Positions 1-20,691 of a stretch of 20,978 bases of DNA are shown here, piece after piece. Within the stretch, counting starts at the first letter, position 1. Each line of letters starts with the position of its first letter. The notes below the pieces were generated by a model. That model saw nothing but the letters and a program-made list of their open reading frames with translations. It did not search any database and had not been told where the DNA came from. The position numbers and the translations under genes were made by a program. This DNA is from a virus, in IMG/VR virus record IMGVR_UViG_3300005664_000127, positions 1 through 20,978 of that record, one strand, 5' to 3'.

Positions 1-3000
1 AACTGGCGGATACGTGGGGCGTCTGATACCGGGTTCAGGGCATAAGACACACGGTTAAACAGTTTCTTGAACTTCCGTCCTTGGGGAGTTCCTTCCTCGG
101 CAGCTTTGATTGCGTAGGCAGAAAGGGTGTCGTTAACCAGATCACCGTAAAGATAGTTGGCAGCAGACTTTGCGGAAGAACCGGAGAAGGCGGAAATGAC
201 GTAATCAATGTCCGTGCTGGCACCGTCGATATGCCGTGAAGTGAGAAGGTGTTTACCAAATCCCCTCACCTTGTAATGCGACATGACATCACCGGCAAGA
301 GCCTCTTGCTGCAAACTCTTGTAAGCTGCGGGGTCCATGCCACCTTTGTCTTTGATAAGACCCATTGTGCGCTGTGTGACAAGATACGTCACGAGATTGA
401 TGTCTACCTGTGATGGGTTCTTGACAAACTTACCGATGTTGTTGTAGGTCATCTGGAACAAACCGTCTGGAGGTGTAATGGTCAGATCGGGTCTGTTCTT
501 GTATTTGGCGACTAGTTGTTTGTGAACACCAATCACATCTTTTAGTTTGGGTTTACCTCCTCCAGGAGCCATCATGGTGTAAAGACCGACAAGATCGCCG
601 TTCTTGTCAACCACACGAAGTGCCCAGTTACCGGAACGCATTTCGGGGACATAAGGAATACCGTTACGCTTGAACCCTTCAAAGTCCTTGATGTAATCAA
701 CAAGGTCTGCTAGATCACCGAGAATCTTTCGCTCCTCGGGACTGGACCTGACTTGGTTCTTAAGATCGGCACGCTTTTGTTTAATCCACCCGAGCATTTC
801 AGGAATTGTTCCTTTTGCCGGGAACGTTGTGAACGCCGGGACACGGGCCAGTGCTTCCATCTTGCCGCGTGTTACTTGCGCGTGAAAGTCCAAAGGAAGG
901 GAAAACACTTTGGACATGGCTCTGATCTTGTCCACAGCAACAGGGGACAATTGGACTCTCTTGCCGTTGTTGTTGGTGTAGATGACCGGGCCATCCCCGT
1001 TCAGAGATACGTCCTGCGCCTTGAGCGCCAGAGCAATCGAGAACAATTCGTAACGGTCGGGCCACTTCTTGATTTCTTCAAAAGACTTGGCCCACGCACC
1101 GTGCAAAGCAGCTTGCGCTTGTTCTCGTTTAAGAACCAGAGTTGACGAGAAAGCGGCATCGGCATCTTTCTTTGCCCAGTTGCGCCAGTGCCCAAGACCT
1201 GATAACCATGACGAAAGCTGGTTGTTCCACCCGGTTGTGTTGTTACCGTCATAGATGTAATCCATTACGTCAAGCTGACGATCAGGAACCTCGGTGGCAA
1301 TCTCTTTGTTACGTTTAACGGCACGAGCCAGTTCAGCATCAATGGTAGATTTAGACGGGGCGTGTTCCGTCAACTTAGCCATGGAGAATTTGGACGATTG
1401 CTTTTCCTTGGCATTAAGAACCGCTCCAAGCTGGCGCTGATTGGCTTGATACAAAGCCTTGTCCATAGCCTTACCGAACTTACCGGAAAGAATCTCATCG
1501 AAGATACGTTCTGCATCACGCTTGCTTGCAAAGGACTTATCCAGTTTCTCTCGGAGTTTGTTTTGGATAGCACGAATGGCATCAAGGATGTTGTTGATAA
1601 TCCGGCGAAGAAGGGGACTGGACGGCTCCTTGAACGAAGGGTCGTTTACCTTATCTACGCCGTAAGCCTTACGTAGTTCTACGGCAGCCCTGTTGTTGGA
1701 CCGAGAGGCATAGTCACCAATGGTGTAAGCCAGAATCTCAGCCCTGCCTTCCGGGTCGTTCAGATCAAACCCGTTGATAAGATCGACAAGATCAGGGCGC
1801 TTCATAAGCTCCTTGTGTTGTTCCTTTAAAGCCTTGTCAAACACACGTTGCATGTCAGTGGTAAGGAACTTGTTGGTGTCGAGGGCGTGAACAATCTCGT
1901 GGACGATTGTTTCAAACGTGTCTACGTTATCTTCCTTCGTAAACTTTCCGGCAATCTTTTGCCGAATGTCGTAGCCAATGTTGATGATGACAGCCCTTGT
2001 CCCGTCCTCAAAATTCTTTTGCTCGCCCCCGGCCCTGCTGTAGGATTTCTTGCCAGTCTCCTTGTTTGTTCTTTCAACAATGATGTCATCTGCAACGACT
2101 GCCGTAATAGACGATCCAGCGTTACCGCCCATAAGACGTTTGGCTACGTCTTCAACAAGACCTTTTACATCAAGGGCAATCCTTGATACATCTTCAACAA
2201 GGTCGGCAGGAAGTGTGTCGTTGATTACAGGGACATACTCGATGTTTGTAATAGGATCGTTAGAGTAGAGAGTGTCGTCAGTCAGGGTGGCCGTAGTGGA
2301 TAGTTTACTGGTGTCGCCAACAGCTTTTGCGCGACGGAGGAAATCAGGTAGACGAAGCTGGTCATCGTCAATGGCTGTGGATTTAACAACGTTGTCAACA
2401 AGAGCCTTTGGGTCGGAGGGGGGGTTGGCAACGATTACTGCATCTTCTGTTTTCTTTGCTAAAGAAAGAATGCGAGAAACATTTACCGGCTCTATGTTAA
2501 TTGCGTCCGCGTTGAAATAAATTTTCACAAGATGGGGTTTAGTGTTTGTGAACTTACCCCCAATGTGGGTGATGCCGCCATAACCTTGTTTTGACAGTGA
2601 ACTGTTGAAATCGTCCAGTATGTCAGTAACCTCCCAAGCTGGTGTATTATGGTAGGCTGCATGTTCTCTAATCTGATCGTAAAAATCAGTGACACTGACT
2701 GTCCCATCAGGCTTAAGTGCGTATCGCATTGCGTCTGCAAAAATACTTTCCTGATCGACTGTTTTCAAGTCCTCCCCAAAGACTGTGCCGTATAGCTCTT
2801 TTAGACCTTCTTCGACTAAAAGATCGGCTTTACGGTATTCGTCGTAGTTATCTTCATCTACTCTAGTGACATCTATGTCAAAGGGTTCTGTTACTTTAAT
2901 TCTTTGATCAATGTTGTAAAATTTTACAGGAGTTTTTTCATCTACTAGATAAACTACACCTTCAGGTGACTTACGTTGGTATCCTTTTGCTGTGTCTAAA

Positions 3001-5180
3001 GCATCTGTTGTGTAGAAACCTCCTCCGTAAATGTTTTTTTCACTTTGACTTTCATCAAATGTGTGTAATTTCTTAATAGGTTTTTTTGTTCCATGGAACT
3101 GTTGCCCTAACCCGCGTGTATCGGGGAGATTCTCAACAAGAGTGTCAAGAGCTTTTGTGGACAGTGTGTTAACTGTGACATCAGGCAGATTTGGAAAGAC
3201 AGTCTGGACTTTAGCGATTTGTTCCTGACGAACCGGGTCTGCCTTGGACGCTTCAATAGCACTGGCAAACGTGGTCAAAGCCTCTGGATCGTTCTTCAGA
3301 TTATTGTAGAACTTCTGTGTTTCCAGAGTCTCATCCAAACCCTTGACGATGTTGTTAGCGACCTTTGCCCGAGGTGAGCCGTCAAATGGGTTAGTGTCAG
3401 GGCCAGCTACTTGTTCAAATGTCTTGGCTACAACAGGGGCAAGACCGCTTTCCACGGCCCCGTTGTAAACCTCAGTGGGAGTCTTTGCGTCAAGGTCACT
3501 TTCAAACTTGGACACACGTTCTGCGTAGTAATCGTTCCACGTATCCCAAGCCTTCTTGCCCCCGGTCTGTTTACCTTTACTGGTTTTCTTTTCGGGAAAA
3601 GCTACTGGAGTTGTGTCAACAACAGGTTCGGCGTTTACCTTAGTTGTGTCCACAACCTTTGGCGCAACCACTGGTGAACCGTCAATTTCTATCTCAAAAG
3701 CGGACGTATCAATCTTGTCCAGACCATCAATGTTAGTGTCGGGTTGCGGAACAGTGAGTCCTGTGTCTGTTACTGGACCCTTTTTGCCTGTGAACTTACG
3801 GGCAGCTATAGCAGCCAGATCGCCACCGTTCTTGGCAGCAATACCTGTTCCGGCAAGAGACGTGCCGATGACACCCCCGACAAGGGCTGACATAACGACT
3901 TCGTTACGGACGTTCTCATCATTGATAAGGTCTGGCAAACCTCCATCGACGGATTGCCCCCACATCTCCAGATAGCTTTGTGTGCCTTCAGTCAGACTAC
4001 CGACTGCACCAGCGCCGGTAAGAGCACCGACCGCACCAACAGCACGCCTTGCTGCCGGAGATTTGAACATCGCCTTAGGCACAATGGACGTAGCTTTAGG
4101 TGCCCTGATAAGTTTACTGAGAGGCTTAAAAGCAGCCGCAAGCAGCCCGTCTACAGCAGTTTCACCAAACCCGGCAATAACGCCACGGGCTGCGTCCGCA
4201 TCGGACATCATCTTAACTTTGTCAGTCTCAGGGATCGAGTCGAAGTTCTCTCCGTAGAGAGCCTCCATTTCCCGCACACGGTTGACAGCTTGTGCGTTGA
4301 TGTTCAGTCCTGTGTAGTATGCCGTGGTGCCTGCAAGGAAACCGATACCAGCACCGGCAGCCGTGCCTACACCAGGAATTGCTGTGCCCGCAAGAGCACC
4401 TGACGCCGCTTCCTCCTTTCCGGTTACAGCCATTGCTCCGAGAGAACGTGTCAGAACGTGTGTAATGCCAGTCGTGAGTTTGTTGAAATCACCCCCACTA
4501 GCCATGTCTACTTCAGACAGAACAGGGGCAACGATACTTCCTGCAATAGCTAGTGCAGGTTTGATAAGGTAGTCGTCGTAGTAGGTGTCCCCAAGGTTTT
4601 TTGCTTCATACTCACTGGCCTGTTTATCCAGTTCAAGGCTTTGTTTGACAAGATCGGCGTATGCTTTCTCGTCACCGCTCATCTTGGCAGCAAGGAGTTT
4701 ATTACCTAGCTCAGTCTTCTTTACGTCAAAGGCAGCGAGGTCTGCGCCAGTAGCTACACCATCAACCGGATTGCCCATCGGATCAACTTGAGGAGCTATC
4801 GGTTGTGTTTGTTCAGTCTCAACAAGACCAACACCGAACTCACCGGTTTTGGGATCGAACCCGTAGGACAGGGTTAGCTTATCTGCTTCAGCCTCGATAC
4901 GCTCTTTATCCTCCAAGGACATCCTTGGTTCTTTGGGGACAAATACATATTCCTCTTTGCCGTTAATCTCTCGAACCTCCATACGGGTTTTCATACCCTC
5001 GGGGATTTCATCAAAATCAAGGTAGTAGTTCTTTGGGCGTAGTGGAGGAGCGGAACCACCTTCAGGCGAGGTCTTTGGTTTTGCCTGTGACTGATCCGGG
5101 GTCACGATAGGCACAGTTTCTTCCTCGGGCAGTTTCCCGATTAACGTGACCTTACCAGTGATGGGATCGTAAGATAGCAC
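1..5180 (-). CDS. Giant polyvalent ejected virion protein with ADP-ribosyltransferase-like and zinc-peptidase domains (partial, C-terminus beyond left edge)
   Basis: The frame stays open from GTG at 5180 to the window edge, giving 1726 codons. The start is set by a TAA four codons upstream and a TAAAGG ribosome site six bases before the GTG. Visible order: a charged, probably disordered N-terminus; glycine/alanine-rich hydrophobic stretches near residues 260-290, 380-400 and 428-452 that could touch membrane; an ADP-ribosyltransferase-like domain at about 690-900 (HGT with His696, GGFYTT with Tyr723, GYGGITH near 867); a metallopeptidase-like domain at about 985-1160 (HEIVH 1094-1098, possible third ligand Glu1148 in AEILAY); helical, Lys/Glu-rich sequence; and YVPEMRSGNW at 1510-1519, resembling the PLxRFG motif of phage polyvalent proteins. 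Such proteins are packaged and enter the cell with phage DNA. It follows a likely ejection protein, which fits. Enzyme activity is inferred, not shown. Codon use turns AT-rich inside the transferase domain. Confidence 0.85.
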   Translation of the reverse strand, partial: MLSYDPITGKVTLIGKLPEEETVPIVTPDQSQAKPKTSPEGGSAPPLRPKNYYLDFDEIPEGMKTRMEVREINGKEEYVFVPKEPRMSLEDKERIEAEADKLTLSYGFDPKTGEFGVGLVETEQTQPIAPQVDPMGNPVDGVATGADLAAFDVKKTELGNKLLAAKMSGDEKAYADLVKQSLELDKQASEYEAKNLGDTYYDDYLIKPALAIAGSIVAPVLSEVDMASGGDFNKLTTGITHVLTRSLGAMAVTGKEEAASGALAGTAIPGVGTAAGAGIGFLAGTTAYYTGLNINAQAVNRVREMEALYGENFDSIPETDKVKMMSDADAARGVIAGFGETAVDGLLAAAFKPLSKLIRAPKATSIVPKAMFKSPAARRAVGAVGALTGAGAVGSLTEGTQSYLEMWGQSVDGGLPDLINDENVRNEVVMSALVGGVIGTSLAGTGIAAKNGGDLAAIAARKFTGKKGPVTDTGLTVPQPDTNIDGLDKIDTSAFEIEIDGSPVVAPKVVDTTKVNAEPVVDTTPVAFPEKKTSKGKQTGGKKAWDTWNDYYAERVSKFESDLDAKTPTEVYNGAVESGLAPVVAKTFEQVAGPDTNPFDGSPRAKVANNIVKGLDETLETQKFYNNLKNDPEALTTFASAIEASKADPVRQEQIAKVQTVFPNLPDVTVNTLSTKALDTLVENLPDTRGLGQQFHGTKKPIKKLHTFDESQSEKNIYGGGFYTTDALDTAKGYQRKSPEGVVYLVDEKTPVKFYNIDQRIKVTEPFDIDVTRVDEDNYDEYRKADLLVEEGLKELYGTVFGEDLKTVDQESIFADAMRYALKPDGTVSVTDFYDQIREHAAYHNTPAWEVTDILDDFNSSLSKQGYGGITHIGGKFTNTKPHLVKIYFNADAINIEPVNVSRILSLAKKTEDAVIVANPPSDPKALVDNVVKSTAIDDDQLRLPDFLRRAKAVGDTSKLSTTATLTDDTLYSNDPITNIEYVPVINDTLPADLVEDVSRIALDVKGLVEDVAKRLMGGNAGSSITAVVADDIIVERTNKETGKKSYSRAGGEQKNFEDGTRAVIINIGYDIRQKIAGKFTKEDNVDTFETIVHEIVHALDTNKFLTTDMQRVFDKALKEQHKELMKRPDLVDLINGFDLNDPEGRAEILAYTIGDYASRSNNRAAVELRKAYGVDKVNDPSFKEPSSPLLRRIINNILDAIRAIQNKLREKLDKSFASKRDAERIFDEILSGKFGKAMDKALYQANQRQLGAVLNAKEKQSSKFSMAKLTEHAPSKSTIDAELARAVKRNKEIATEVPDRQLDVMDYIYDGNNTTGWNNQLSSWLSGLGHWRNWAKKDADAAFSSTLVLKREQAQAALHGAWAKSFEEIKKWPDRYELFSIALALKAQDVSLNGDGPVIYTNNNGKRVQLSPVAVDKIRAMSKVFSLPLDFHAQVTRGKMEALARVPAFTTFPAKGTIPEMLGWIKQKRADLKNQVRSSPEERKILGDLADLVDYIKDFEGFKRNGIPYVPEMRSGNWALRVVDKNGDLVGLYTMMAPGGGKPKLKDVIGVHKQLVAKYKNRPDLTITPPDGLFQMTYNNIGKFVKNPSQVDINLVTYLVTQRTMGLIKDKGGMDPAAYKSLQQEALAGDVMSHYKVRGFGKHLLTSRHIDGASTDIDYVISAFSGSSAKSAANYLYGDLVNDTLSAYAIKAAEEGTPQGRKFKKLFNRVSYALNPVSDAPRIRQ
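2640..3100 (-). other. AT-rich patch inside the polyvalent gene, coding for the ADP-ribosyltransferase-like domain
   Basis: The reading frame is unbroken, but base composition changes. Hand counts give 16 G+C of 60 (27%) at 2881-2940 and 35% at 3001-3060, against 29 of 60 (48%) at 3181-3240. Codons here favour AAA, AGA, ATT, ACA and TTT, while the flanking parts of the gene use AAG, CGT, ATC, ACC and TTC more. The patch covers about residues 694-847, including His696 and Tyr723 but not the GYGG motif near 867. This looks like domain-level acquisition or replacement. Confidence 0.6.
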
Positions 5181-5239: not shown

Positions 5240-7348
5240 TCAACGGTTGAACGTAGAGTCTTTGCTTGGTTTAAGCAAGCCTCGTGCTGTTCCGGTTATT
5301 TCTTCAGCAGCTTTTCTCTGATCTTCTTCCAGCAAATCAAGCCTTTGCTGTATCTGGTAAGCTACATCCTTGTGTCCGTCTTTTGAAAGAGGGCCAATAT
5401 AGCTCGACAAGTCTCTTGCCGCAGCTACAGCCTTTGGATAATTTCTTTCATCACCGTAAAGAGCGTCATCAAGTGTTTTCAGTTTTTGCTCCAGACCAGG
5501 GTATTTCTTTGGGTTATAGTCGGGTGGAGCATTTTTCTCGTCTTCATACTTCTGGCGAGCCAGATCAAGACGCAGGGCCGATAGTTCCGTGTTGGTAGCT
5601 GCGTTACCTACAGTAGCTAGTCCAAGCATCTCCCTCAAAGCGCGGTCATCTGCGTCTTTCTTGGCGCGGTAGTCGTCGTCCCTTGAACGATTATCCATCT
5701 GGTCCACAAGGTTCTGAATTTGCATCTGCTTGTATCGCTGGTTAAGCAGTCCCATTGGATCGACTTCCTCGCTTTTAAGGGAGCCGCCAATACCAGCAGC
5801 CAAACCTTCGCCAACAGGTGTTCCGCCCGAAGCAAGCAGGCTCAAACCGATGTTAAGAAGCGTGTCTGACAAATTATCCTTGCCGAACAACTGGTCAACC
5901 TTACGCTTACCACCACTCGTGGGGACAGACCCTCCGAACAAGGACTCAAGGAACCCACCTTCAGCATAACCTTTGTTGACAGGACCACCACCGGCAAGAG
6001 TGACACGGCCCATCATGTCCGAGGCAGAAGCACCCATACCGGGATCAACCCCAGTCCGTAGCCCGGACTTATACTGGTCAAGAAGTTGGGCCACCGGGTT
6101 GCCGCCACGGTCGGCAGGGTTGATGTTCTCGATAGCAACAGGACCGGCGTTATAGGACACAGCAGGCGATACAAACCCGCCACTTGTGTTGCTAATGTCG
6201 GGTCCCTCGGAGAGAAGAACAGGGTTCACAGGGGCCTGATTAGCGCCGCTGTAACCTCCGGGCGTGGACGTAATACCATTATCTTTGAACGGGTTCTGTG
6301 TCTGGCGGATAACATCGCTGGATTCCCCCATAGAGAACGGATTACCGACACGGCCACCGTAGGCATACTTCTTGACAGGACCACCCTCCTTTTGTCCGCG
6401 TGGGTTAAGAGCATTGGTGATATTTCCCCATACAGAACCCAGACTACTAAGTCCACCAAGACCAAGGGCACCTGAACCCATAAGAGAAGCACCGCCCGTG
6501 AACGGAGCAGCGACAAGAGAGGCTACACCAAGGATGGTGCTGAGAGGATCGCCTGAAGTCTTCTGGGTAGTCTTGGAATCCTGCCCAATAGAACCGGGAG
6601 ACAGAGCGCCCGTGACGTTAACAAGGTTCCCCAGTTTGTTTGCGCGCTGCATGATCTGATTGTAGAAATCCTGCGCTCTCAGATCGAGGTCCATCTGTTC
6701 TACACCACGTTCAGCTTTACCGGCTGCTTCCATGGCGGTAGCATCGGTCAGACCGTATGCCTGTCCTTGGCGGGCCAGATCGACAAGACCACGGGCGTTA
6801 CCGGACATACGATCAATCTGTCCAAGAAGGGTAGACAGACCTTGGTTGTAGTTGTCCGACATGCCGCGATAGTAGGTATCGCCAATGTTGCGCTGGGTAT
6901 CGGCCATGTTCATGCCTTCAAGAAGTCCTTGGCGAGAGCCACCAAAGGCTCCGCTCAAAGCTGACCTTGAACCGATGTCCAGATTGTTCCTGTCCCCTTG
7001 TTCACGGATGCGGTCGATGGTCCGGTTAAGGACTGTCTCCGTGAACGGGTTCATGTATTGCTCTAGTTCAGCCTGTGTAGGCGCACGCCCTGAACGCGCA
7101 AGAGCTTCCTGTTGTGCAGCCAGACCTTGGTCAATGGAGCCTTGATACTTGCCCATCAACTGGTCAAGCATGGTGTAGGCTGTGTTCTCTCGGTCAGACA
7201 AATCCGCAGCACGGGCGAACGGATTGGCTACAACAGGATCACGGTTCTGGGCAAGAGCCGACGAGACAAGCTCGTTATACATCCCTTGCAGTTGAGGTGT
7301 AACTACGGGACGTGACTTGGTTGAGGAAGTGGTTGTCTTGCTACCCAT
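5240..7348 (-). CDS. Putative internal virion / DNA-ejection protein, 702 aa
   Basis: The N-terminal 230 residues have a pattern I associate with podophage internal or ejection proteins: a YMNPFTETVLNRTIDRI segment, then SGAFGGSRQGLLEG, then helical alanine/glutamine-rich sequence. A glycine-rich hydrophobic stretch follows at about 275-310 and could interact with membrane. Next come two motifs of the type GGPVxxYAxGG, one before and one after a low-complexity Gly/Pro/Asn section. The C-terminal third is charged and helical, probably coiled coil, around RYKQMQIQNLVDQMDNRSRDD and later AAEEITGTARG. The gene starts five bases after the GNAT-fold gene and ends 59 bases before the giant polyvalent gene. 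This position, downstream of the nozzle gene, is where podoviruses keep proteins injected with the genome. No enzymatic motif is visible. A structural tail role is the main alternative. Confidence 0.75.
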   Translation of the reverse strand: MGSKTTTSSTKSRPVVTPQLQGMYNELVSSALAQNRDPVVANPFARAADLSDRENTAYTMLDQLMGKYQGSIDQGLAAQQEALARSGRAPTQAELEQYMNPFTETVLNRTIDRIREQGDRNNLDIGSRSALSGAFGGSRQGLLEGMNMADTQRNIGDTYYRGMSDNYNQGLSTLLGQIDRMSGNARGLVDLARQGQAYGLTDATAMEAAGKAERGVEQMDLDLRAQDFYNQIMQRANKLGNLVNVTGALSPGSIGQDSKTTQKTSGDPLSTILGVASLVAAPFTGGASLMGSGALGLGGLSSLGSVWGNITNALNPRGQKEGGPVKKYAYGGRVGNPFSMGESSDVIRQTQNPFKDNGITSTPGGYSGANQAPVNPVLLSEGPDISNTSGGFVSPAVSYNAGPVAIENINPADRGGNPVAQLLDQYKSGLRTGVDPGMGASASDMMGRVTLAGGGPVNKGYAEGGFLESLFGGSVPTSGGKRKVDQLFGKDNLSDTLLNIGLSLLASGGTPVGEGLAAGIGGSLKSEEVDPMGLLNQRYKQMQIQNLVDQMDNRSRDDDYRAKKDADDRALREMLGLATVGNAATNTELSALRLDLARQKYEDEKNAPPDYNPKKYPGLEQKLKTLDDALYGDERNYPKAVAAARDLSSYIGPLSKDGHKDVAYQIQQRLDLLEEDQRKAAEEITGTARGLLKPSKDSTFNR

Positions 7349-7353
7349 ATTAT

Positions 7354-7827
7354 TTACGCGGCCTTGTTATAGATGAACGATGTGCCTACGCGCTGTAGTC
7401 CACGGTAACGGAACACACGGTCATAGACGGCGAAGTTGGTTTCAGGGGCAGCGATGACATCGAAGTAAAGTGGGATGTTTGTGACATCGGATACGTCCTT
7501 GAAGAAATCCATAAGAAGTGTAGCAGCACTGGTCCCACGATAGCCTTGCTCTACATAGAACAGGACGTTGTTCCACGTCTTTGCAGAAGTCCACCACATC
7601 TCGATCTGAGCAATGATACCGATACCGGCAATCTTGTTGAACTCGGTATCAAATACAATAACGCCGTATGCTTCCTCGTTATCGACAAGAGCCTTTAGCT
7701 TTGCTTCACAAACAGCCCGGTCCTTTGGAACAATAGCTGTGATTTCATCGAACTCCCGGATTGATTCAATGTAGTCACAGATAACTGGAATATCTTCTGA
7801 AGCAAAACGTTGCAGGACCAGAGCCAT
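7354..7827 (-). CDS. GNAT-fold acetyltransferase-like protein, 157 aa
   Basis: The length and fold pattern match a single GNAT (Gcn5-related N-acetyltransferase) domain. An N-terminal LQRFASEDIPVICDYI segment resembles strand one and helix one. A central strand pair around EEAYGVIVFDTEFNKIAGIG is followed by VLFYVEQGYRGTSAATLLMDF, which fits the acetyl-CoA pyrophosphate-binding motif A (Q/R-x-x-G-x-G/A). The end, around YDRVFRYRGLQRVGTSFIYN, fits the C-terminal strands. Its substrate is unknown. It sits four bases after the 105-residue gene and five bases before the 702-residue ejection-type gene, so it is made with the virion proteins. Small GNAT proteins in phage structural clusters are known but rarely explained. 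It could acetylate a virion or host protein, or be a structural derivative without activity. Confidence 0.75.
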   Translation of the reverse strand: MALVLQRFASEDIPVICDYIESIREFDEITAIVPKDRAVCEAKLKALVDNEEAYGVIVFDTEFNKIAGIGIIAQIEMWWTSAKTWNNVLFYVEQGYRGTSAATLLMDFFKDVSDVTNIPLYFDVIAAPETNFAVYDRVFRYRGLQRVGTSFIYNKAA

Positions 7828-8493: not shown

Positions 8494-10305
8494 TTACCTC
8501 TGCCCATCGGGCTTGATACGAAGCCTTGTCTTACCGATCTGGACGTTGGAGTTAACGCCTGACAAAGTGTATCTCATTTCCATCTGACGGCCCCGGCCCC
8601 TCATGTAAAGCACGGGCTGGCCTGCAACAGAGAACGGACCCTTGTAAGTCTCCTCCGATGACTCAGGGTATTTCTTGAACCCGAACTCGATCTTGAAATC
8701 TCCTTGGACGTATTTGTAGTCAGGAACGTATTGGTCCACGAACATGATGTCAGAGCCATCGTCAATATCGAAGAAGGACGTATAGAGAAGGAACGGCAGT
8801 TCTGCCCCATCGGCATTGGCCCCTGTCTCGTGGTAGAAAGCCGTGGTGCTGGTATTAGTGGCAATAGGCCGAGAGAACACGGAGGCATCTTCCCACGTGG
8901 TGCGCCTGCGCTGTCCGTCATACCAGAGATTGTCCATGAAATTATAGACAATGTATCTGTCGTTTTCCTCGGAGTTTCGGCTTGGGTAGAACCACCAGAT
9001 TTCCGAGAACTCGGCATTGACCCCGCAGAACACCTTGAACGCTTGCTGTTCGTTCAGCCCGTCCCCGAAGTTCTTGTTGAATATGTTGTCGTAAAGAGAG
9101 CAATCGAGTTTCTGGACCGAGCCGTTGTAGACAAAGAAACCGGCACTGGACATCCAGTAAACAACACCGTTCACGTCTCGTGCTGCCTGCGGGCCAATAA
9201 GACCGCAATTGGCACCGACCTTCTCGATGGAGAATACGTAGTCGCCACCTACATAGGTCTGTCTGTAGACACCCGTATCCGTGAACACGACTGTCTCAGC
9301 CTTGGTGGTGATGGCCCGGACAATCTCGTTACCGTCCTGAATCCTGATTTCGCCTGACGCATTGGTCACAGCCGGATTGAACTGGGTGTAATCTTCGTTA
9401 GATGACCAGCGGATAAGAAGCGGATCGAACGGACCAAGATAGGCCGAAGTCCCGTAACAACAAAGGATACGAGGAGGGTTGATGACCGAGATGGAGTTGG
9501 CTTTAGTTGGGGCACCGCTGATCTGGGAGGCACGCACACCCGTCCCAAGAGTGCGGTCCCACAGATAGATACCTCCTCCTCGGTAGTTGGCAATCAAATC
9601 CTCACCCCAGTTCTCCAAAACCCAAGTACGGAGCAAGAGAAGGTCTGCCGAGGACACAGGCACACCTACGCCCCATCCGCCACCAGAGCCGCCCCAAGGG
9701 CCACTACCCCACCCTGCGGCCACGGTAGACGATGATCGCCCGGAGGCAAGAAGGAACTGGAGGGAGATGGAAGTCCCTACGTCCGTTACCGTAGACGTAG
9801 CTGTGACACCCGCATCGAACGTAAAGTTGTTGGTATCGGCTGAGACAACAGCATAAACGGAGTTGGCTGCAAGAGGGATACCGTCTACGTTGACAGAAGT
9901 TGCAACCACGAACCTGTCATTGACAGCGGTTCCGTTGTTGTTGAGGGACACACCGACAATGGTTGAGCCGGAGGTAGCAGAGAAGATGGACGTAGCTACA
10001 ACAGAAGTCTGGACCGGAGTAATATCCGTAAAAGTTGTTTCGTTGTAGATACTTAGCTGGTCAGTTGTCCCTACAGCATACCACCTGTCACCTTGAAGAT
10101 CGGACCAGGATTGACTGTCTCGGGCGATACCTACATAAGTAGCCGAGGTAGTGACTTGCTGGAACCCACCCATCTTCTTTGGGTTGCCGTGCTGGAACCT
10201 TGCCCATTGGCACGAGACATAAGAACCCTCCGACTGATACGGAGCGTCGTTCTTGTTGATACCCGGCCTGATGTTTATGACTTTGAGCAGACCAGAGGAG
10301 GTCAC
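8494..10305 (-). CDS. Tail nozzle / packaged-DNA stabilisation protein, P22 gp10-like, 603 aa
   Basis: The N-terminus (LLKVINIRPGINKNDAPYQS, then SCQWARFQHGNPKKMGGFQQ) has the pattern of the P22 gp10-type stabilisation and nozzle proteins, which begin with a statement of a model, a region, then beta-propeller repeats. The middle is rich in beta strands, aromatic residues and Gly/Trp runs (GWGSGPWGGSGGGWGVGVP). WSSNEDYTQFNPA and the later YRQTYVGGDYVFSIEKVGANCGL are typical of this family. In P22 the protein forms the tail tube end that keeps DNA in the capsid. The start is GTG at 10305: GAGGAAAA follows directly on the stop of the collar-fibre gene, with 11 bases to the start. Length is in the usual range. 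Identification rests on pattern memory, but its position among adaptor and ejection genes fits well. Confidence 0.8.
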   Translation of the reverse strand: MTSSGLLKVINIRPGINKNDAPYQSEGSYVSCQWARFQHGNPKKMGGFQQVTTSATYVGIARDSQSWSDLQGDRWYAVGTTDQLSIYNETTFTDITPVQTSVVATSIFSATSGSTIVGVSLNNNGTAVNDRFVVATSVNVDGIPLAANSVYAVVSADTNNFTFDAGVTATSTVTDVGTSISLQFLLASGRSSSTVAAGWGSGPWGGSGGGWGVGVPVSSADLLLLRTWVLENWGEDLIANYRGGGIYLWDRTLGTGVRASQISGAPTKANSISVINPPRILCCYGTSAYLGPFDPLLIRWSSNEDYTQFNPAVTNASGEIRIQDGNEIVRAITTKAETVVFTDTGVYRQTYVGGDYVFSIEKVGANCGLIGPQAARDVNGVVYWMSSAGFFVYNGSVQKLDCSLYDNIFNKNFGDGLNEQQAFKVFCGVNAEFSEIWWFYPSRNSEENDRYIVYNFMDNLWYDGQRRRTTWEDASVFSRPIATNTSTTAFYHETGANADGAELPFLLYTSFFDIDDGSDIMFVDQYVPDYKYVQGDFKIEFGFKKYPESSEETYKGPFSVAGQPVLYMRGRGRQMEMRYTLSGVNSNVQIGKTRLRIKPDGQR

Positions 10306-11162: not shown

Positions 11163-11837
11163 TTAGTTTTCCTGCTTAAGTGTGTTGACCTGAATATTAG
11201 TGGAATACGGCCCCATACCCTCATCTCTGCGGGCACGGCGGGCTTCGTTGTTGACACCTATCATTAAATTGACATACGATTGCTCGTGGTATTGCTTCAG
11301 TTCGCCGTTACGAGCGAAGTCAGCCATGTAAGACATGGAGGCATGGAACAGGGCGTCAGGCATCCATTCGGTGTAGGTGTTGGTCTGGTTGCTTGTCGAA
11401 AGACCAACAGGCTTTACTACGTGTGTAACGTCGATGGCGTAAGCTGCGTCAGGCGTAGGGCTTAAAAGGAACTGGGTATTGGAGTAGTCTGCGTAGTATT
11501 TAGGATTACCTACAGACGTGTTTGCGTAAGGCCAATATTTCTCACAGAACGAAACTGTGTTCTTGTTGAGGTTCTGTAGAGTACCAGCCGAGGTGGTGTA
11601 ACGGATAGACTTCCCAAGACGATACCCGGTAGGTTTGTTGACCAGACGATTGTTGGCTGTAGCTGTTACCGTGGATGTCACCTCGATACCAGTGAAATCT
11701 GTCTCTCGGAGAAGTCTGAACTCAGCATTGGCAATGGCCGTAGGAATGTAGTTAGCCGTCTCCGTCGAGTCATCCTCAAGAGCTTCCTGGATTGCCGAGA
11801 CGAGAGTGTTGTAAGATACGATACCGTTATTAGCCAA
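11163..11837 (-). CDS. Head-tail adaptor-like protein, 224 aa
   Basis: The protein begins VSYNTLVSAIQEALEDDS and continues YIPTAIANAEFRLLRETDFT, a pattern of podovirus adaptor proteins (SU10 adaptor and T7 gp11-like group). Later comes NPKYYADYSNTQFLLSPTPD, then an alpha-helical end with an arginine-rich segment (NNEARRARRDEG). Such proteins form a 12-fold ring between portal and nozzle. The start is TTG at 11837. It is supported by AAGGA eight bases upstream and by overlap of eight bases with the membrane-protein gene. The length is usual for the family. A second, unrelated-looking adaptor candidate is encoded at 12573-13265, so the division of labour between them is open. Confidence 0.75.
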   Translation of the reverse strand: MANNGIVSYNTLVSAIQEALEDDSTETANYIPTAIANAEFRLLRETDFTGIEVTSTVTATANNRLVNKPTGYRLGKSIRYTTSAGTLQNLNKNTVSFCEKYWPYANTSVGNPKYYADYSNTQFLLSPTPDAAYAIDVTHVVKPVGLSTSNQTNTYTEWMPDALFHASMSYMADFARNGELKQYHEQSYVNLMIGVNNEARRARRDEGMGPYSTNIQVNTLKQEN

Positions 11838-12144
11838 GACCGCCGTCCTTCTCTTTTTCCTTCATACGATCAAGAACGCTCAAATTGTGGTAGACAACCC
11901 AAGCGAACGGAGCCATGAACAGCAAGATAGCCCAGACCTGCGGAAAGGCCAGCCAACCAAACAACACAACAACACCTAGTTTGATTGACCAGCGATACGG
12001 ACTAAGCACCGGCTGAAGCATGATCCACTTCATTACCGGGTTCTTTTCTACACCGCCACGGGAGATGATTTCATCAGTCAAGAGTGCATCCACCACGTTA
12101 AGTGTGAAGGCAACGAGAAAAAGGACGATATAGGTTTCCAGCAC
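11830..12144 (-). CDS. Small membrane protein, DUF5658-like, possible holin, 104 aa
   Basis: Three hydrophobic helices can be seen: residues about 4-22 (YIVLFLVAFTLNVVDALLT), 55-72 (SIKLGVVVLFGWLAF) and 73-90 (VWAILLFMAPFAWVVYH). The pattern of N-x-x-D in the first helix, E-x-NP before the second helix, and Lys starting the second matches the DUF5658 family as I remember it (DALLTDEIISRGGVEKNPVM). The C-terminus is highly charged (RMKEKEKDGG), as in many holins. The start is GTG at 12144, six bases after the zinc-ribbon gene's stop, and the end overlaps the adaptor-like gene. A membrane gene among neck and tail genes may be a holin or an entry-related protein. The holin call is inference from size, topology and context. 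Confidence 0.75.
   Translation of the reverse strand: MLETYIVLFLVAFTLNVVDALLTDEIISRGGVEKNPVMKWIMLQPVLSPYRWSIKLGVVVLFGWLAFPQVWAILLFMAPFAWVVYHNLSVLDRMKEKEKDGGLG
11846..11852 (-). promoter_or_regulatory. Ribosome binding site for the TTG start at 11837
   Basis: AGAAGGA on the minus strand, inside the end of the membrane-protein gene, lies eight bases upstream of TTG at 11837. There is no ATG or GTG nearby in the same frame, so this site decides the start of the adaptor-like gene. Confidence 0.6.
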
Positions 12145-15543: not shown

Positions 15544-16007
15544 AACGTAGCCGCTGCCCTGAACAGGTCGTCCATCTGCTCACCGGTCATGCCAAGGGCC
15601 GCAGCCGCGCCCTCAACCAGCGGCGAGTGCCGTTCGATCACCGTGGCGTATTCCCACACGATCTTGGCAGGACCGCCAGCCTTGTCGATGAACGCCTCGA
15701 CGGCATCGAGTGCCCCCATGCTGTCCAGCACCAGCCGGGCCTGAAGCGCCGTGATAGTCTCAGGGACCGCCGGTATCTCCTGATCTGGCTCCGGCACGGG
15801 CGTAGGTGCGGGGTCGAACCACTTGGGAAAGTCCTTTGTGATTTCCTCTGCGACACGGTAGCCGCACGGCTCGGGCAGGGTGAGCGGATTGCCGTCCTTG
15901 TCAAACAGTCCGAGGACAAAGCCGCCCTCGATTGTGCGGTAGAACGAGCCTTTTCCACCGTATTCAAACTCCAGACGTTCAAGTGTTTTTGTCATCGCTG
16001 TCACCAT
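15540..16007 (-). CDS. Tail-fibre accessory or assembly-like protein, 155 aa
   Basis: The C-terminal half (TALQARLVLDSMGALDAVEA, then KIVWEYATVIERHSPLVEGA, then LGMTGEQMDDLFRAAATL) is a domain I know from small proteins following fibre genes in alphaproteobacterial phages and prophages. The N-terminal half resembles a fibre-adapter domain (FYRTIEGGFVLGLFDKDGNP) joined by a Pro-rich linker (APTPVPEPDQEIPAVPE). ATG 16007 overlaps the stop of the glycine-rich gene (ATGGTGA); ATG 15995 is an alternative, with GGTGA just upstream. It probably helps the glycine-rich protein fold or attach. G+C is about 63% at 15661-15720, well above the gene to its left. Confidence 0.7.
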   Translation of the reverse strand: MVTAMTKTLERLEFEYGGKGSFYRTIEGGFVLGLFDKDGNPLTLPEPCGYRVAEEITKDFPKWFDPAPTPVPEPDQEIPAVPETITALQARLVLDSMGALDAVEAFIDKAGGPAKIVWEYATVIERHSPLVEGAAAALGMTGEQMDDLFRAAATL

Positions 16008-16939
16008 GCCACGATATACACGAAGCCGGGGCCGCCATTGCCACCAGCGCCACCGGTCGTGCCAGCACCGCCGCCACCACCGCCGCAGCCCCAGCCGCCA
16101 TCACCACCGCGACCGCCTGCTACGACACCGCCCGAGTTGCCGCCAGCCCCACCTTGTGACCCGCTAGGAAACAGGGTATCACCCCAAAATGTTCTGCCGT
16201 GGGTGCCAGCCAGACCGGCACCGGGCAATTGCGCCGGAGCAATCCAGAACCCGGTCGTGCCTGTGATAGACGGCGAGCCACCAGAGCCGCCCGCTGCAAC
16301 AACGTCGCCGGTTGTAACACCAGCGCCGCTGCCACCGGCGCAAGCGAAAGGCAAAACCTGAATCGCTCCACTTGTCCCGACACCCGATACGCCGCCGTTT
16401 ACGCCCGCTGCACCCGACGATGTGGTCAACTGACCGAGATGGGTAATCCAAGATGCGGAAAAGCTGGTCGGGATCGTGTTGGCACCACCCTGCGTCCCAC
16501 CCGCCGCGCCGGTGCCCGCTGTTGGAGCCGCAGCGGCTGTGCAAAGCCCTTGCGTAATACGTGTGCTTGAGGGCTGAGACAGGAAAGTAATAGCCCCAGC
16601 CGAAGGCCCGACACCGGGTGAGCCTGCCGCGCCACCAAGGCCGCCATTGGAAGGCCGGATGATGATCTGGTTCGGCAAGAACAGCGCGGGCATAATGAAG
16701 CGCCCGAAACCGCCACCGCCACCGCTGCCCCCGCCACCGCCTTGAGCACCAGAGGCGCGCGTGAACCCACCAGCACCACCGGCCCCGCCGTTCTGGATGA
16801 ACATATAGACGAAGCTCGCCCCGACAGGCTTGGTCCAGACGTATTCCTTTTCAGTGGCCGCGACGCCATTACCGCCGACGAACAAATCTTCTCCGAGAAG
16901 ATTGCCCTTCGGAGCCCTACCCATGTTGAACATGGTCAT
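16001..16939 (-). CDS. Glycine-rich tail-fibre / adhesin-like protein, 312 aa
   Basis: After a short N-terminal part with a YVWTKPVGASFVYMFIQNGG strand, the protein is dominated by GGAGG, GGGGGSGGGGG and GGAGGNGGPG blocks. It ends with GFVYIVAW. Such glycine-rich repeats are known from phage adhesins, where polyglycine II helices pack into a sandwich, and the last aromatic strand is a common closing element. The protein is likely a receptor-binding tip. It lies between a beta-rich virion protein and a fibre-accessory protein, both in the same GC-rich block (46 of 60 G+C at 16021-16080). The start is three bases after the previous stop. No metal site or catalytic motif is visible. Confidence 0.75.
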   Translation of the reverse strand: MTMFNMGRAPKGNLLGEDLFVGGNGVAATEKEYVWTKPVGASFVYMFIQNGGAGGAGGFTRASGAQGGGGGSGGGGGFGRFIMPALFLPNQIIIRPSNGGLGGAAGSPGVGPSAGAITFLSQPSSTRITQGLCTAAAAPTAGTGAAGGTQGGANTIPTSFSASWITHLGQLTTSSGAAGVNGGVSGVGTSGAIQVLPFACAGGSGAGVTTGDVVAAGGSGGSPSITGTTGFWIAPAQLPGAGLAGTHGRTFWGDTLFPSGSQGGAGGNSGGVVAGGRGGDGGWGCGGGGGGAGTTGGAGGNGGPGFVYIVAW

Positions 16940-17382: not shown

Positions 17383-17399
17383 GTTATTATTATTATTAA
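17383..17399. repeat. ATT/TAA triplet run at the compositional boundary
   Basis: On the plus strand this reads as repeated TTATTATT..., giving multiple TAA stops on the minus strand after the 749-residue fibre gene. It lies precisely where the DNA changes from about 48% to about 62% G+C. It may be a slippage site or a scar of recombination. Confidence 0.5.
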
Positions 17400-19645
17400 A
17401 ATGTGACATAGCGTTGAGATACAACTTGACTGAGAGTAATTCCACCGCCACCACCTCCACCCGTTGCCGATACCAGAACGTCGATACGGTTACTTGAAGC
17501 ATTGGCTGAAGTGGAGATAGCCAGTGTTCCACCAGCGATAAAGTTAAGCATTGGCCTGGACCCAACAGTTGTCCCGGCATTAAGCACTTGGATACGTTGG
17601 ATAGTTGTATCATCTACAACTGTTAGCGTTCTATCCGCAGTTAGATTGCCACCTCCGGTCAGACCTGTGCCAGCAGTAATCGTTCTCGTTTGTGGAACAT
17701 TATTATCGTATTGTGATTTCAGTGCGCCAGTTAACAGACCAGCAGCCGTCGATGTAGCGGCTGGAACAGTGGCGTCTGTGCCTGTATCGCTCGTAATATC
17801 CAACGTGGTGCCAGTGATATTGGCAACACCAAGATTGGTTCCGGCCCCTGCACCGCCCGTTGCTGAGATAAGAACATCAATACGATTAGAAGATAGATTG
17901 GCCGAAGTGGAGATAGCCAGTGTTCCACCGGCAATGAAATTAAGCATCGACCGGGCACCGACCGTGGTTCCGGCGTTAAGTACTTGAATTTGCTGGATAG
18001 TTGTGTCGTTAACTACCGAGATGGTTCTGTTTGCCGACAGATCGCCGCCACCAGTCAGACCAGTGCCAGCAACGATTGACGTAGCGGCAAGAGCAAACAG
18101 GGCTGTGTTGACGATTGGAGCCGAGACATTGATGTCGATACGGTTACCAGATGGATTAGCCGATACATTGACTTGAACTGCACCGCCTTCAGTGAAGTTA
18201 AGGAACGGACGTTCACCTGTCGTGACACCCGCCTTCTGGACTTGCACCCGTTGGACAGTAGAGTCAGGAACCACGGCAAGGGTCCGTGAGGTAGTCAGAT
18301 CGCCGCCCCCGGTCAGACCAGTCCCGGCAATGATCGAGACTGCGGCTTCTGCTGCCCCAATATAGGTCCGTGCGGCCCCTGTGTTCAGGATATTAAGGAA
18401 CCCACGGCCAAAGGGAAGGGACGGGGTAACAGACATAGCCGTGGGAGACGAGAAATAAGCAAAGCCTTCAGACGAACCAGAGACACCGCTGAGGGCCGAT
18501 AGATTGGAGTTGGCTGGTTGTGCCCCCACGTCCCCGGCAGAGGGCATAGGGTGAACGTGGTCCTGTCTGCTGGCCTCGGTAGCAACACCAGCCGAGGCAC
18601 TCCCGAGAGAGACGGCGGGAGTGTTGCTTAGAGGTGTTCCTGAACCCCCTGTAGCCGCTGAGATGAGAACATCAACCCGATTACCGGATGGATTAGCTGA
18701 GGTAGAGATAGCCAAAGACCCACCAGAAATGAAGTTAAGCATTGACCGGGCACCAACAGTTGTTCCGGCGTTGAGCACCTGGATTTGCTGGATGGTCGTA
18801 TCGTTGACTACGGCAAAAGAGCGGTTAGTAGTTAGATCACCGCCCCCGGTTAGACCTGTGCCCGCAGTAAGGGTGCGGATTTGGGGGACGTTGTTATCGT
18901 ATTGTGATTTAAGTGTTGCGGTCAGAAGGCCCGCTGCAATAGAGGTAGCAGCCGGAACTGTAGCATCTGAACCTGTATCAGAAGTGATGTCAAGAGTTGT
19001 TGCCGTAATATTGGCAACACCAAGGTTTGTTCCGCCAGCACCACCCGTGGCTGACAAAAGAACGTCAATCCTGTTGCCTGACGGGTTAGCTGAAGTAGCT
19101 ACAGTAAGAGTGCCACCACCGATGAAGTTAAGCATCGACCGGGCACCAACTGTGGTCCCGGCGTTAAGTACTTGAATTTGTTGGATAGTTGTGTCGTTGA
19201 CTACCGAGATGGTCCGGTTGGCGGATAGATCACCACCACCTGTCAGACCTGTTCCTGCTGTGATCGAGGTGGCAGCAAAGGCAAAGTCACCGGGAACGTA
19301 AACAGCAAAGGCTGTGAGATTGGCGCTGGAGGTTTGTGCCCCTATCTGGGTAGGAGTGGGATAAGGGTGAACGTGGTCGTAACGAGAGAGTTCCGTTGAG
19401 ACGCCGGGGGCACCGGAGACGCCAAGAGGAAGGGCGGGAATGTCAGAGGGCGTGCCACCAGCACCGCCAATGGGAAAGAACCCTTTTACGCCACTGGCAT
19501 CCGTGCCGTAGTATTCGGAGTTACCGGGGTTGATTTCATCGTTGACAAGTTGTAACGGATCGACAGGTGTCCCATCGCCGGTAATGGATTTACCAGCCGT
19601 TGCAATTGTTTGCTTGGTAAGGGAGCGTAGGCCGAGACTTTCCAC
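17396..19645 (-). CDS. Repeat-built tail-fibre protein, 749 aa
   Basis: The protein has five copies of a module beginning AGTGLTGGGDL (GNL in the last), followed by NRTISVVNDTTIQQIQVLNA and GTTVGARSMLNF, then a SANPSGNRIDVLISATGG-type end. Two copies of a histidine motif, SRYDHVHPYP and SRQDHVHPMP, lie between modules; the latter is common in fibre stalks. Modules 1, 4 and 5 share nearly identical DNA stretches. The GTG start at 19645 is the only likely start after an in-frame TAA, but no clear ribosome site is seen, so the first residues (LADIVESL) may belong to an earlier start. The stop is followed by a TAA run. A trimeric beta-rich stalk with metal-binding histidines is likely. It could be the main side fibre. 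Confidence 0.8.
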   Translation of the reverse strand: MESLGLRSLTKQTIATAGKSITGDGTPVDPLQLVNDEINPGNSEYYGTDASGVKGFFPIGGAGGTPSDIPALPLGVSGAPGVSTELSRYDHVHPYPTPTQIGAQTSSANLTAFAVYVPGDFAFAATSITAGTGLTGGGDLSANRTISVVNDTTIQQIQVLNAGTTVGARSMLNFIGGGTLTVATSANPSGNRIDVLLSATGGAGGTNLGVANITATTLDITSDTGSDATVPAATSIAAGLLTATLKSQYDNNVPQIRTLTAGTGLTGGGDLTTNRSFAVVNDTTIQQIQVLNAGTTVGARSMLNFISGGSLAISTSANPSGNRVDVLISAATGGSGTPLSNTPAVSLGSASAGVATEASRQDHVHPMPSAGDVGAQPANSNLSALSGVSGSSEGFAYFSSPTAMSVTPSLPFGRGFLNILNTGAARTYIGAAEAAVSIIAGTGLTGGGDLTTSRTLAVVPDSTVQRVQVQKAGVTTGERPFLNFTEGGAVQVNVSANPSGNRIDINVSAPIVNTALFALAATSIVAGTGLTGGGDLSANRTISVVNDTTIQQIQVLNAGTTVGARSMLNFIAGGTLAISTSANLSSNRIDVLISATGGAGAGTNLGVANITGTTLDITSDTGTDATVPAATSTAAGLLTGALKSQYDNNVPQTRTITAGTGLTGGGNLTADRTLTVVDDTTIQRIQVLNAGTTVGSRPMLNFIAGGTLAISTSANASSNRIDVLVSATGGGGGGGITLSQVVSQRYVTF
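17440..19275 (-). repeat. Five-copy AGTGLTGGG module array in the 749-residue fibre gene
   Basis: Module starts on the minus strand lie near 19272, 18880, 18335, 18085 and 17690. Spacing is about 390-395 bases for the longest type, shorter for the third, and larger where a HVHP segment is inserted. Module 1 and module 4 share an almost identical run encoding DLSANRTISVVNDTTIQQIQ and a second block encoding ITSDTGxDATVPAATS. This suggests recent duplication or gene conversion rather than old drift. Confidence 0.75.
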
Positions 19646-19761: not shown

Positions 19762-20691
19762 TTAGCTACCGGCGCTCCCGACAAAACCGCGCCAGTCACC
19801 CCAACCGAACGCATAACGCTCACGGGCCTTGTAGCGCATGTTGCCGGTCGTGAACTCACCTTCCATGGCGGTCTGTAGCTTGACACGGTTGAACATGATC
19901 GTGCCGAGCGGAACGTCCGTCTTGACAAACCAGGCATCGCTGTCCACGAAGCGGGTGTTCGTGAAGAAACCACGGGGGAAATACTTACCCTTCATGATCG
20001 CGTTGATCTGGTTCTGGTTGGTGACACCAGTGGTCGAGTTCGTGGCGTTGACCGTGGTGTACTCGGTCTGGAGAATCTGCATCGCCGTGAACTCGTTCTC
20101 GGGGGCAACGTGCAGGCTAAGAGCCTTGGCGTTGATCAGGATACCACGGTCGTCCGTCATGCGACGGATGCGGGTAATGGCGTCCTGAAGGCCCGTCTCG
20201 GAAAGATCGCCAGTGATGAGGTTTGACTGGTTGACACCGATGACCGATGGGTGCGAGGCCGAGAACAAAGGCTGACCGTCACCGCCAAGGCGGCTGGTCG
20301 AGAAGCCAAGGTTGAACACGTTGGCAGCCTTGGTTTCCTTGGCAGCCGACATGGACCGGCCAAGCTGCTGTGCCTGGAACATGGCCTTGGTTTCATAAAG
20401 GTTGTCCTCCATGGCTTCCTCGGTGATCTGGAAGCCAAGAGCAATGGTTTCCATATCCCAACGAGCCGTGTAGGTTTCCTGTGCGTCATCGAAGTCCACA
20501 GCCGAGCCTTCAGGCTTGGTGGCTGCGATACCGAAGCCGGTCATCATAACCTGCTCCTCGAACGCACGGACCGAGTTCTTGATCTCGAACAGTGCCTTGT
20601 GCTCGCCAGAGTTTTCACCGTATGAAACACCGAGGATGGCGTTCAGGCCGGGAACTAGCTGCTTGGCGATATTAGCGCGGGTAATCGTCAT
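19762..20691 (-). CDS. Major capsid protein, HK97-fold type, 309 aa
   Basis: The sequence matches the pattern of podovirus and Mu-type major capsid proteins: an N-terminal helix-rich arm (MTITRANIAKQLVPGLNAIL), EIKNSVRAFEEQVMMTGFGI, the central RWDMETIALGFQITEEAMED with AKETKAANVFNLGFSTSRLG, LFSASHP, an A-domain with a long strand, and the characteristic RYKARERYAFGWGDWRGFVG end. No protease or scaffold domain is visible, so a separate scaffold is expected outside the window. The start is ATG at 20691 with a GGAAAG...GAGAT-like ribosome site. It follows the partial small gene by 33 bases and is separated from the fibre genes by the terminator. This is the most confident gene in the window. 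Confidence 0.92.
   Translation of the reverse strand: MTITRANIAKQLVPGLNAILGVSYGENSGEHKALFEIKNSVRAFEEQVMMTGFGIAATKPEGSAVDFDDAQETYTARWDMETIALGFQITEEAMEDNLYETKAMFQAQQLGRSMSAAKETKAANVFNLGFSTSRLGGDGQPLFSASHPSVIGVNQSNLITGDLSETGLQDAITRIRRMTDDRGILINAKALSLHVAPENEFTAMQILQTEYTTVNATNSTTGVTNQNQINAIMKGKYFPRGFFTNTRFVDSDAWFVKTDVPLGTIMFNRVKLQTAMEGEFTTGNMRYKARERYAFGWGDWRGFVGSAGS

What the first reader, a model, noticed from the sequence alone, without database searches (positions are those of the whole stretch)
1..5180. Giant ejected protein joins an ADP-ribosyltransferase-like domain, a zinc-peptidase motif and membrane-like segments
In one open frame of at least 1726 codons I see HGT (His696), GGFYTT (Tyr723) and GYGGITH near 867, matching the H-Y-x pattern of ADP-ribosyltransferases in polyvalent proteins. 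HEIVH at 1094-1098 with Glu1148 looks like a gluzincin-type site, and YVPEMRSGNW at 1510 is PLxRFG-like. Gly/Ala-rich hydrophobic segments lie at 260-452. If packaged, this protein could modify and cleave host targets at the moment of DNA entry. The multi-domain plan is known for phage polyvalent proteins; this particular pairing and its targets appear undescribed to me, which is inference.
Basis: partly seen in the sequence, partly recalled or inferred. Interest (0 to 1): 0.78.

Follow-up and report, generated by a model that had tools for sequence, protein, structure and literature searches.

The report
Phage polyvalent protein, altered ADP-ribosyltransferase domain
A phage from an environmental sample carries a very large protein of a known kind, probably packed into the virus particle and injected with its DNA; it joins an ADP-ribosyltransferase-type domain to a probable zinc-peptidase domain, a known pairing, but the transferase-type domain lacks the aspartate that all 29 relatives keep.

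Summary
The frame is real: a minus-strand gene, window 5180 to 3, 1726 codons, cut by the contig end. The ART (ADP-ribosyltransferase) domain is real. A profile built without this protein finds residues 692-896 at E = 7e-8, and the ART profile's best solved-structure matches are PARP domains. His696 and Tyr723 are conserved, but the family's third catalytic residue is Asp in 29 of 29 relatives and Gly868 here, so ordinary transferase activity is doubtful. HEIVH (1094-1098) with Glu1148 is a probable but weakly supported zincin of the polyvalent-protein type; a chance HExxH appears in 1% of shuffles. The PLxRFG-like match is not significant. The Gly/Ala-rich segment belongs to an N-terminal module shared with other giants. 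Position matches known ejected or polyvalent giants: last gene of the virion module. In phage MinM2 the same slot holds a 2803-residue protein with ART, HExxH and LPD38. ART + metallopeptidase fusion is already described (Iyer et al. 2017) and occurs in F116 gp60 and other giants here. Verdict: a divergent new member of the polyvalent proteins, not a new pairing. Ejection, activity and targets are inferred. Both structure models were too poor to use.

The parts
3..5180 (-). giant polyvalent-type gene, at least 1726 codons, GTG start, 3' end cut off by the contig edge
3804..4409 (-). N-terminal Gly/Ala-rich module, residues 258-459, shared with L009, MinM2 and L126 giants
   Evidence: hmmsearch 10.6 bits versus 0.5 for the best of 200 shuffles; pairwise with L009 0/500 shuffles
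2493..3107 (-). ART-PolyVal / HYD-type ADP-ribosyltransferase domain, residues 692-896
   Evidence: E=6.7e-8 with a profile that excludes the window; Pfam ART-PolyVal 0.0016, DUF3990 0.0011, both below curated cut-offs; PARP-fold PDB hits with the ART profile
3093..3095 (-). His696, first catalytic position, conserved 30/30 (window included)
3012..3014 (-). Tyr723, second catalytic position, Tyr in 25/30 rows, window included
2577..2579 (-). Gly868 at the third catalytic position, Asp in all 29 homologues
1686..2063 (-). probable zincin metallopeptidase domain, about residues 1040-1165
   Evidence: Pfam ATLF 0.0065, below its cut-off; alignment with L009; hhalign P=4e-4
1887..1901 (-). HEIVH, residues 1094-1098, with Asp1101 three residues after it
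   Evidence: expected 0.011 per shuffled protein
1737..1739 (-). Glu1148, candidate third zinc ligand, aligned with Glu in L009 (AEILAYTIGDYA / REMQAYAFGAYA)
1461..1613 (-). helical tail and IFDxxxxGxxGK motif after the zincin, also in L009
582..653 (-). PLxRFG-like stretch YVPEMRSGNWALRVVDKNGDLVGL; profile match not significant
5240..7348 (-). 702-aa virion-module protein directly upstream; no Pfam match at E<=1
7354..7827 (-). GNAT acetyltransferase (phrog_1249)
8494..10305 (-). stabilization / virion structural protein (phrog_3287), the synteny anchor
11163..11837 (-). SU10-type head-tail adaptor
19762..20691 (-). major capsid protein, Mu gpT-like

Best explanation
The gene encodes a phage-type polyvalent protein: a late-expressed giant packaged in the virion and delivered with the DNA. 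A Gly/Ala-rich N-terminal module probably serves packaging or passage through the tail and membrane. An ART-fold domain probably still binds NAD or an ADP-ribosyl ligand through His696 and Tyr723, but it lacks the family's catalytic Asp, so it is likelier a weak, altered or non-catalytic version than a normal transferase. A zincin most likely cuts the polypeptide itself into units before or after entry, and may also cut host proteins. Shown: the frame, ART homology, the residue loss, the genomic slot. Probable: the zincin. Inferred: packaging, ejection, processing, targets.
For: ART profile without the window E=6.7e-8 over the whole domain; PDB matches of the ART profile to PARP domains; Asp 29/29 versus Gly868. 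Zincin: HExxH plus E..AY..G.YA shared with L009, Pfam ATLF 0.0065, hhalign P=4e-4 to the F116 zincin 2 profile while two HExxH domains of F116 itself score 0.013 against each other. N-terminal module. Synteny: in the phages closest by the stabilization protein the module ends in giants annotated 'DNA transfer protein', 'putative structural protein' or carrying polyvalent domains (MinM2; L009). Self-cleavage role and injection: Iyer et al. 2017 PMC5512222; head packaging of phage ARTs: PMC9503650.
Against: No curated family passes its cut-off. No relative of the whole protein in phages, viral contigs or bacterial genomes. Both structure models had pLDDT below 50 and say nothing. F116-derived zincin profiles do not detect the window zincin at their thresholds. 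LPD38, present in MinM2 and L009, is not seen, but the contig ends before its expected place.
Confidence: 0.68

Rival explanations
1. One reading: both domains are active effectors that ADP-ribosylate and cleave host proteins at DNA entry; the third catalytic residue is supplied from elsewhere, or the enzyme works without it as some H-Y-phi mono-ARTs do (own knowledge).
For: H696 and Y723 conserved; ART is the commonest protein-modifying domain of polyvalent proteins and is predicted to modify host proteins.
Against: Asp is invariant in all 29 relatives, including solo jumbo-phage forms and giants, and is Gly here; Iyer et al. define the family's site as H-Y-D.
Confidence: 0.2
2. The giant is mainly a structural or internal-core ejection protein; the ART and zincin are relics and the zincin is not a peptidase.
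For: Slot relatives with no recognisable enzymatic domain are common; ART residue lost; zincin support is weak.
Against: HEIVH and Glu1148 are retained in a fast-evolving protein, with the surrounding motifs shared with L009.
Confidence: 0.15
3. Gly868 is a sequencing or assembly error, or a rare variant, in an otherwise ordinary H-Y-D ART.
For: Single metagenomic contig, no second copy found.
Against: The rest of the frame is intact over 1726 codons.
Confidence: 0.15

Closest known systems
Phage polyvalent proteins (Iyer et al. 2017, PMC5512222)
   Same: Giant multidomain phage protein with ART and MPTase hub domains, encoded with virion genes
   Different: ART lacks the catalytic Asp; no curated domain above cut-off; C-terminus missing
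MinM2 (OQ594354) 2803-aa 'RelA/SpoT' protein WEV89212.1
   Same: Same slot after the stabilization protein; order N-module, ART, HExxH, C-terminal helical region
   Different: No significant overall BLASTP match; variant FHST motif, Asp kept; carries LPD38 and other domains
Pseudomonas phage F116 gp60
   Same: HExxH domains, ART (H-Y-D) and PLxRFG in one 1649-aa protein
   Different: Zincins precede the ART; canonical PLxRFG; Asp kept
GAP32_436 and jumbo-phage solo ARTs (phrog_25279); L097 solo ART in a virion gene module
   Same: Closest ART domains in sequence (53% over 55 aa for GAP32_436; 39% over 67 aa for L097)
   Different: Not part of a giant; Asp kept; curated ART-PolyVal match for GAP32_436
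T4 Alt
   Same: Functional precedent: an ART packaged in the head and injected
   Different: R-S-E clade, not H-Y-D; not polyvalent

Membership tests
ART-PolyVal / Tox-ART-HYD2 | sequence homology over the domain | tested here: met
   E=6.7e-8 with a profile excluding the window; Pfam itself below cut-off, 19.6 of 31.2 bits
ART-PolyVal / Tox-ART-HYD2 | strand 1 His | tested here: met
   H696, 30/30
ART-PolyVal / Tox-ART-HYD2 | strand 2 Tyr | tested here: met
   Y723, 25/30
ART-PolyVal / Tox-ART-HYD2 | strand 5 Asp | tested here: not met
   Gly868; Asp in 29/29 others. That this column is the strand 5 Asp of Iyer et al. is inferred from its invariance
ART-PolyVal / Tox-ART-HYD2 | ART fold | tested here: inconclusive
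   Model pLDDT 46; ART profile (A6) to PARP13 in PDB E=0.0098
Polyvalent-protein zincin (MPTase) | HExxH plus Glu on the following helix | tested here: met
   HEIVH 1094-1098, E1148 aligned with L009
Polyvalent-protein zincin (MPTase) | profile homology / fold | tested here: inconclusive
   hhalign P=4e-4, ATLF 0.0065, not found by F116-seeded HMMs, model pLDDT 36
PLxRFG domain | profile match | tested here: not met
   2.0 bits, within shuffles
Phage polyvalent protein | two or more disparate activities in one polypeptide | tested here: inconclusive
   ART homology firm, zincin probable, activities untested
Phage polyvalent protein | encoded with virion genes | tested here: met
Phage polyvalent protein | packaged and injected with DNA | not testable with these tools
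   needs virion proteomics and an ejection assay

The most novel reading that the evidence does not exclude
The ART domain is a retained pseudoenzyme that binds NAD or ADP-ribose without transferring it, and gates or targets the neighbouring zincin, so that the giant is processed only on entering a cytoplasm that contains NAD.
Probability: 0.05. Interest if true: 0.65.

Novelty: new member of a known kind. Interest (0 to 1): 0.3.

Why it matters
It widens the known divergence of polyvalent proteins: no curated model passes its cut-off for either domain, although the ART is clearly homologous. It shows that the terminal slot of this Mu-gpT-capsid phage group holds giants of very different content. 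An ART that lost its third catalytic residue asks whether ART-fold domains in ejected proteins can have non-transferase roles. The pairing itself is known.

Tried and rejected
Whole-protein searches of phages, viral contigs and genome contigs found no relative beyond the ART. Subdomain tblastn for zincin and C-terminus found nothing convincing. NCBIfam: no hit. MutS_III, Vmethyltransf_C, DnaB_bind and the Rv2626c PDB hit are sub-threshold matches judged to be chance and were rejected. PLxRFG by profile: not significant. Zincin scan of viral contigs: none. Two AlphaFold2 jobs: pLDDT 46 and 36; one Foldseek search of the first gave no match with E<=0.001. Two viral-contig scans with the stabilization protein (80 loci each, partly the same): no close relative of the giant in them.

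Full report
WHAT IS THERE. The window is a 20,978-base IMG/VR virus record, probably a fragment. The frame is on the minus strand, from a GTG at 5180 to the contig edge, 1726 codons without a stop, with AAAGG six bases upstream of the start. Because the contig ends inside the gene, the C-terminus is unknown.

ART DOMAIN. Pfam gives ART-PolyVal 19.6 bits and DUF3990 19.1 bits on the isolated segment, both under their curated cut-offs, and PHROG 25279 at 2.9e-5. tblastn finds Cronobacter phage GAP32_436 at 53% identity over 55 residues, and a viral-contig scan finds L097 at 39% over 67 residues. A profile built from relatives without the window, iterated over 185 sequences held here, finds the window at 32 bits, E = 6.7e-8, over ORF residues 695-899, that is protein residues 692-896. 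In the PDB, a profile of alignment A6 (window plus four relatives) hits the PARP domains of ZC3HAV1/PARP13 and RCD1 at 0.0098 to 1.8, weak but of the right fold. In an alignment of 30 unique members, window included, His696 is kept in 30, the Tyr723 column is Tyr in 25, and the G-[Y/H/F]-D-G aspartate is kept in all 29 homologues, while the window has Gly868. Iyer et al. define this ART family by H, Y and D. That the aligned column is that D is inferred from its invariance. So the homology is firm and the catalytic claim is not.

ZINCIN. HExxH occurs in 1% of shuffles of this protein. L009, the phage whose stabilization protein is closest, has a giant in the same place with ETVAHENFHALQ and REMQAYAFGAYATLRNN against the window's ETIVHEIVHALD and AEILAYTIGDYASRSNN, then a shared helical tail ending IFDxxxxGxxGK. 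Asp1101 lies three residues after the motif, a feature Iyer et al. report for a widespread phage clade; that clade's conserved strand 2 His was not found here. Profile evidence is modest: ATLF 0.0065, hhalign P = 4e-4 against F116 zincin 2, compared with 0.013 between two HExxH domains of F116 itself. F116-seeded HMMs do not find it.

N-TERMINAL MODULE AND C-TERMINUS. Residues 258-459 match a Gly/Ala-rich module of L009, MinM2 and L126, 10.6 bits against at most 0.5 bits in 200 shuffles; pairwise with L009 no shuffle of 500 reaches the score. In a search over all giants with shuffled queries as the null, the top raw scores of this Gly/Ala-rich segment were within the null range, so the L009 and profile comparisons carry the claim. 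Hydrophobicity stays under 1.6, so a transmembrane claim is not made. The PLxRFG-like stretch aligns at the right motif, but its score is within shuffles. In MinM2, LPD38 starts about 360 residues after the comparable motif; here the contig ends 216 residues after it.

NEIGHBOURHOOD. Upstream on the same strand lie a Mu-gpT-like capsid protein, an SU10 adaptor, a stabilization protein (phrog_3287), a GNAT and a 702-aa protein. Phages with the related stabilization protein end the same module with a giant or large protein: DSL-LC04 'DNA transfer protein', HTVC027P 'putative structural protein', MinM2 2803 aa, L009 at least 2025 aa. MinM2's giant carries ART, HExxH and LPD38; L009's carries a methyltransferase and LPD38. 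Other slot proteins show no such domains, so the slot content varies.

NOVELTY. Iyer et al. 2017 (PMC5512222) state that the metallopeptidase domain is fused in large proteins to ART, and that N4-like RNA polymerase-metallopeptidase proteins associate with ART. In sequences fetched here, twelve giant-ORF rows besides the window have an ART and an HExxH in one frame; two of them, L006 and L090, are the same MinM2 protein, which leaves eleven. The pairing is therefore known. What remains unusual is the divergence and the Gly868 change.

MECHANISM. Best reading: a virion-packaged polyvalent protein, self-processed by the zincin, with an ART-fold domain that is altered or non-catalytic. Packaging, ejection, processing and targets are inferred from family precedent, not shown here.

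Noticed in passing
window 17396-19645 (-): 749-aa likely tail-fibre protein built of several diverged copies of a 'TAGTGLTGGGDLSANRTISVVNDTTIQQIQVLNAGTTVGARSMLNFI' unit; no Pfam family above its cut-off.
   Followed up: partly
window 16001-16939 (-): 312-aa Gly-rich ORF in a sharp GC peak (64% against about 50%) with short GCC-type repeats.
   Followed up: no
L097:4566-5624: A solo ART-PolyVal/DUF3990 protein in another phage's virion gene module, with Asp kept.
   Followed up: partly
L009:9843-15917: At least 2025-aa polyvalent giant with zincin, methyltransferase, LPD38 and phrog_18222 C-terminus in the same slot.
   Followed up: partly
L006:15886-24297: MinM2 giant annotated only 'RelA/SpoT' holds ART, two HExxH motifs, an N4-vRNAP-like zincin (phrog_2206) and LPD38.
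   Followed up: partly
window 11830-12144 (-): 104-aa DUF5658 small membrane protein, a possible holin-like gene.
   Followed up: no
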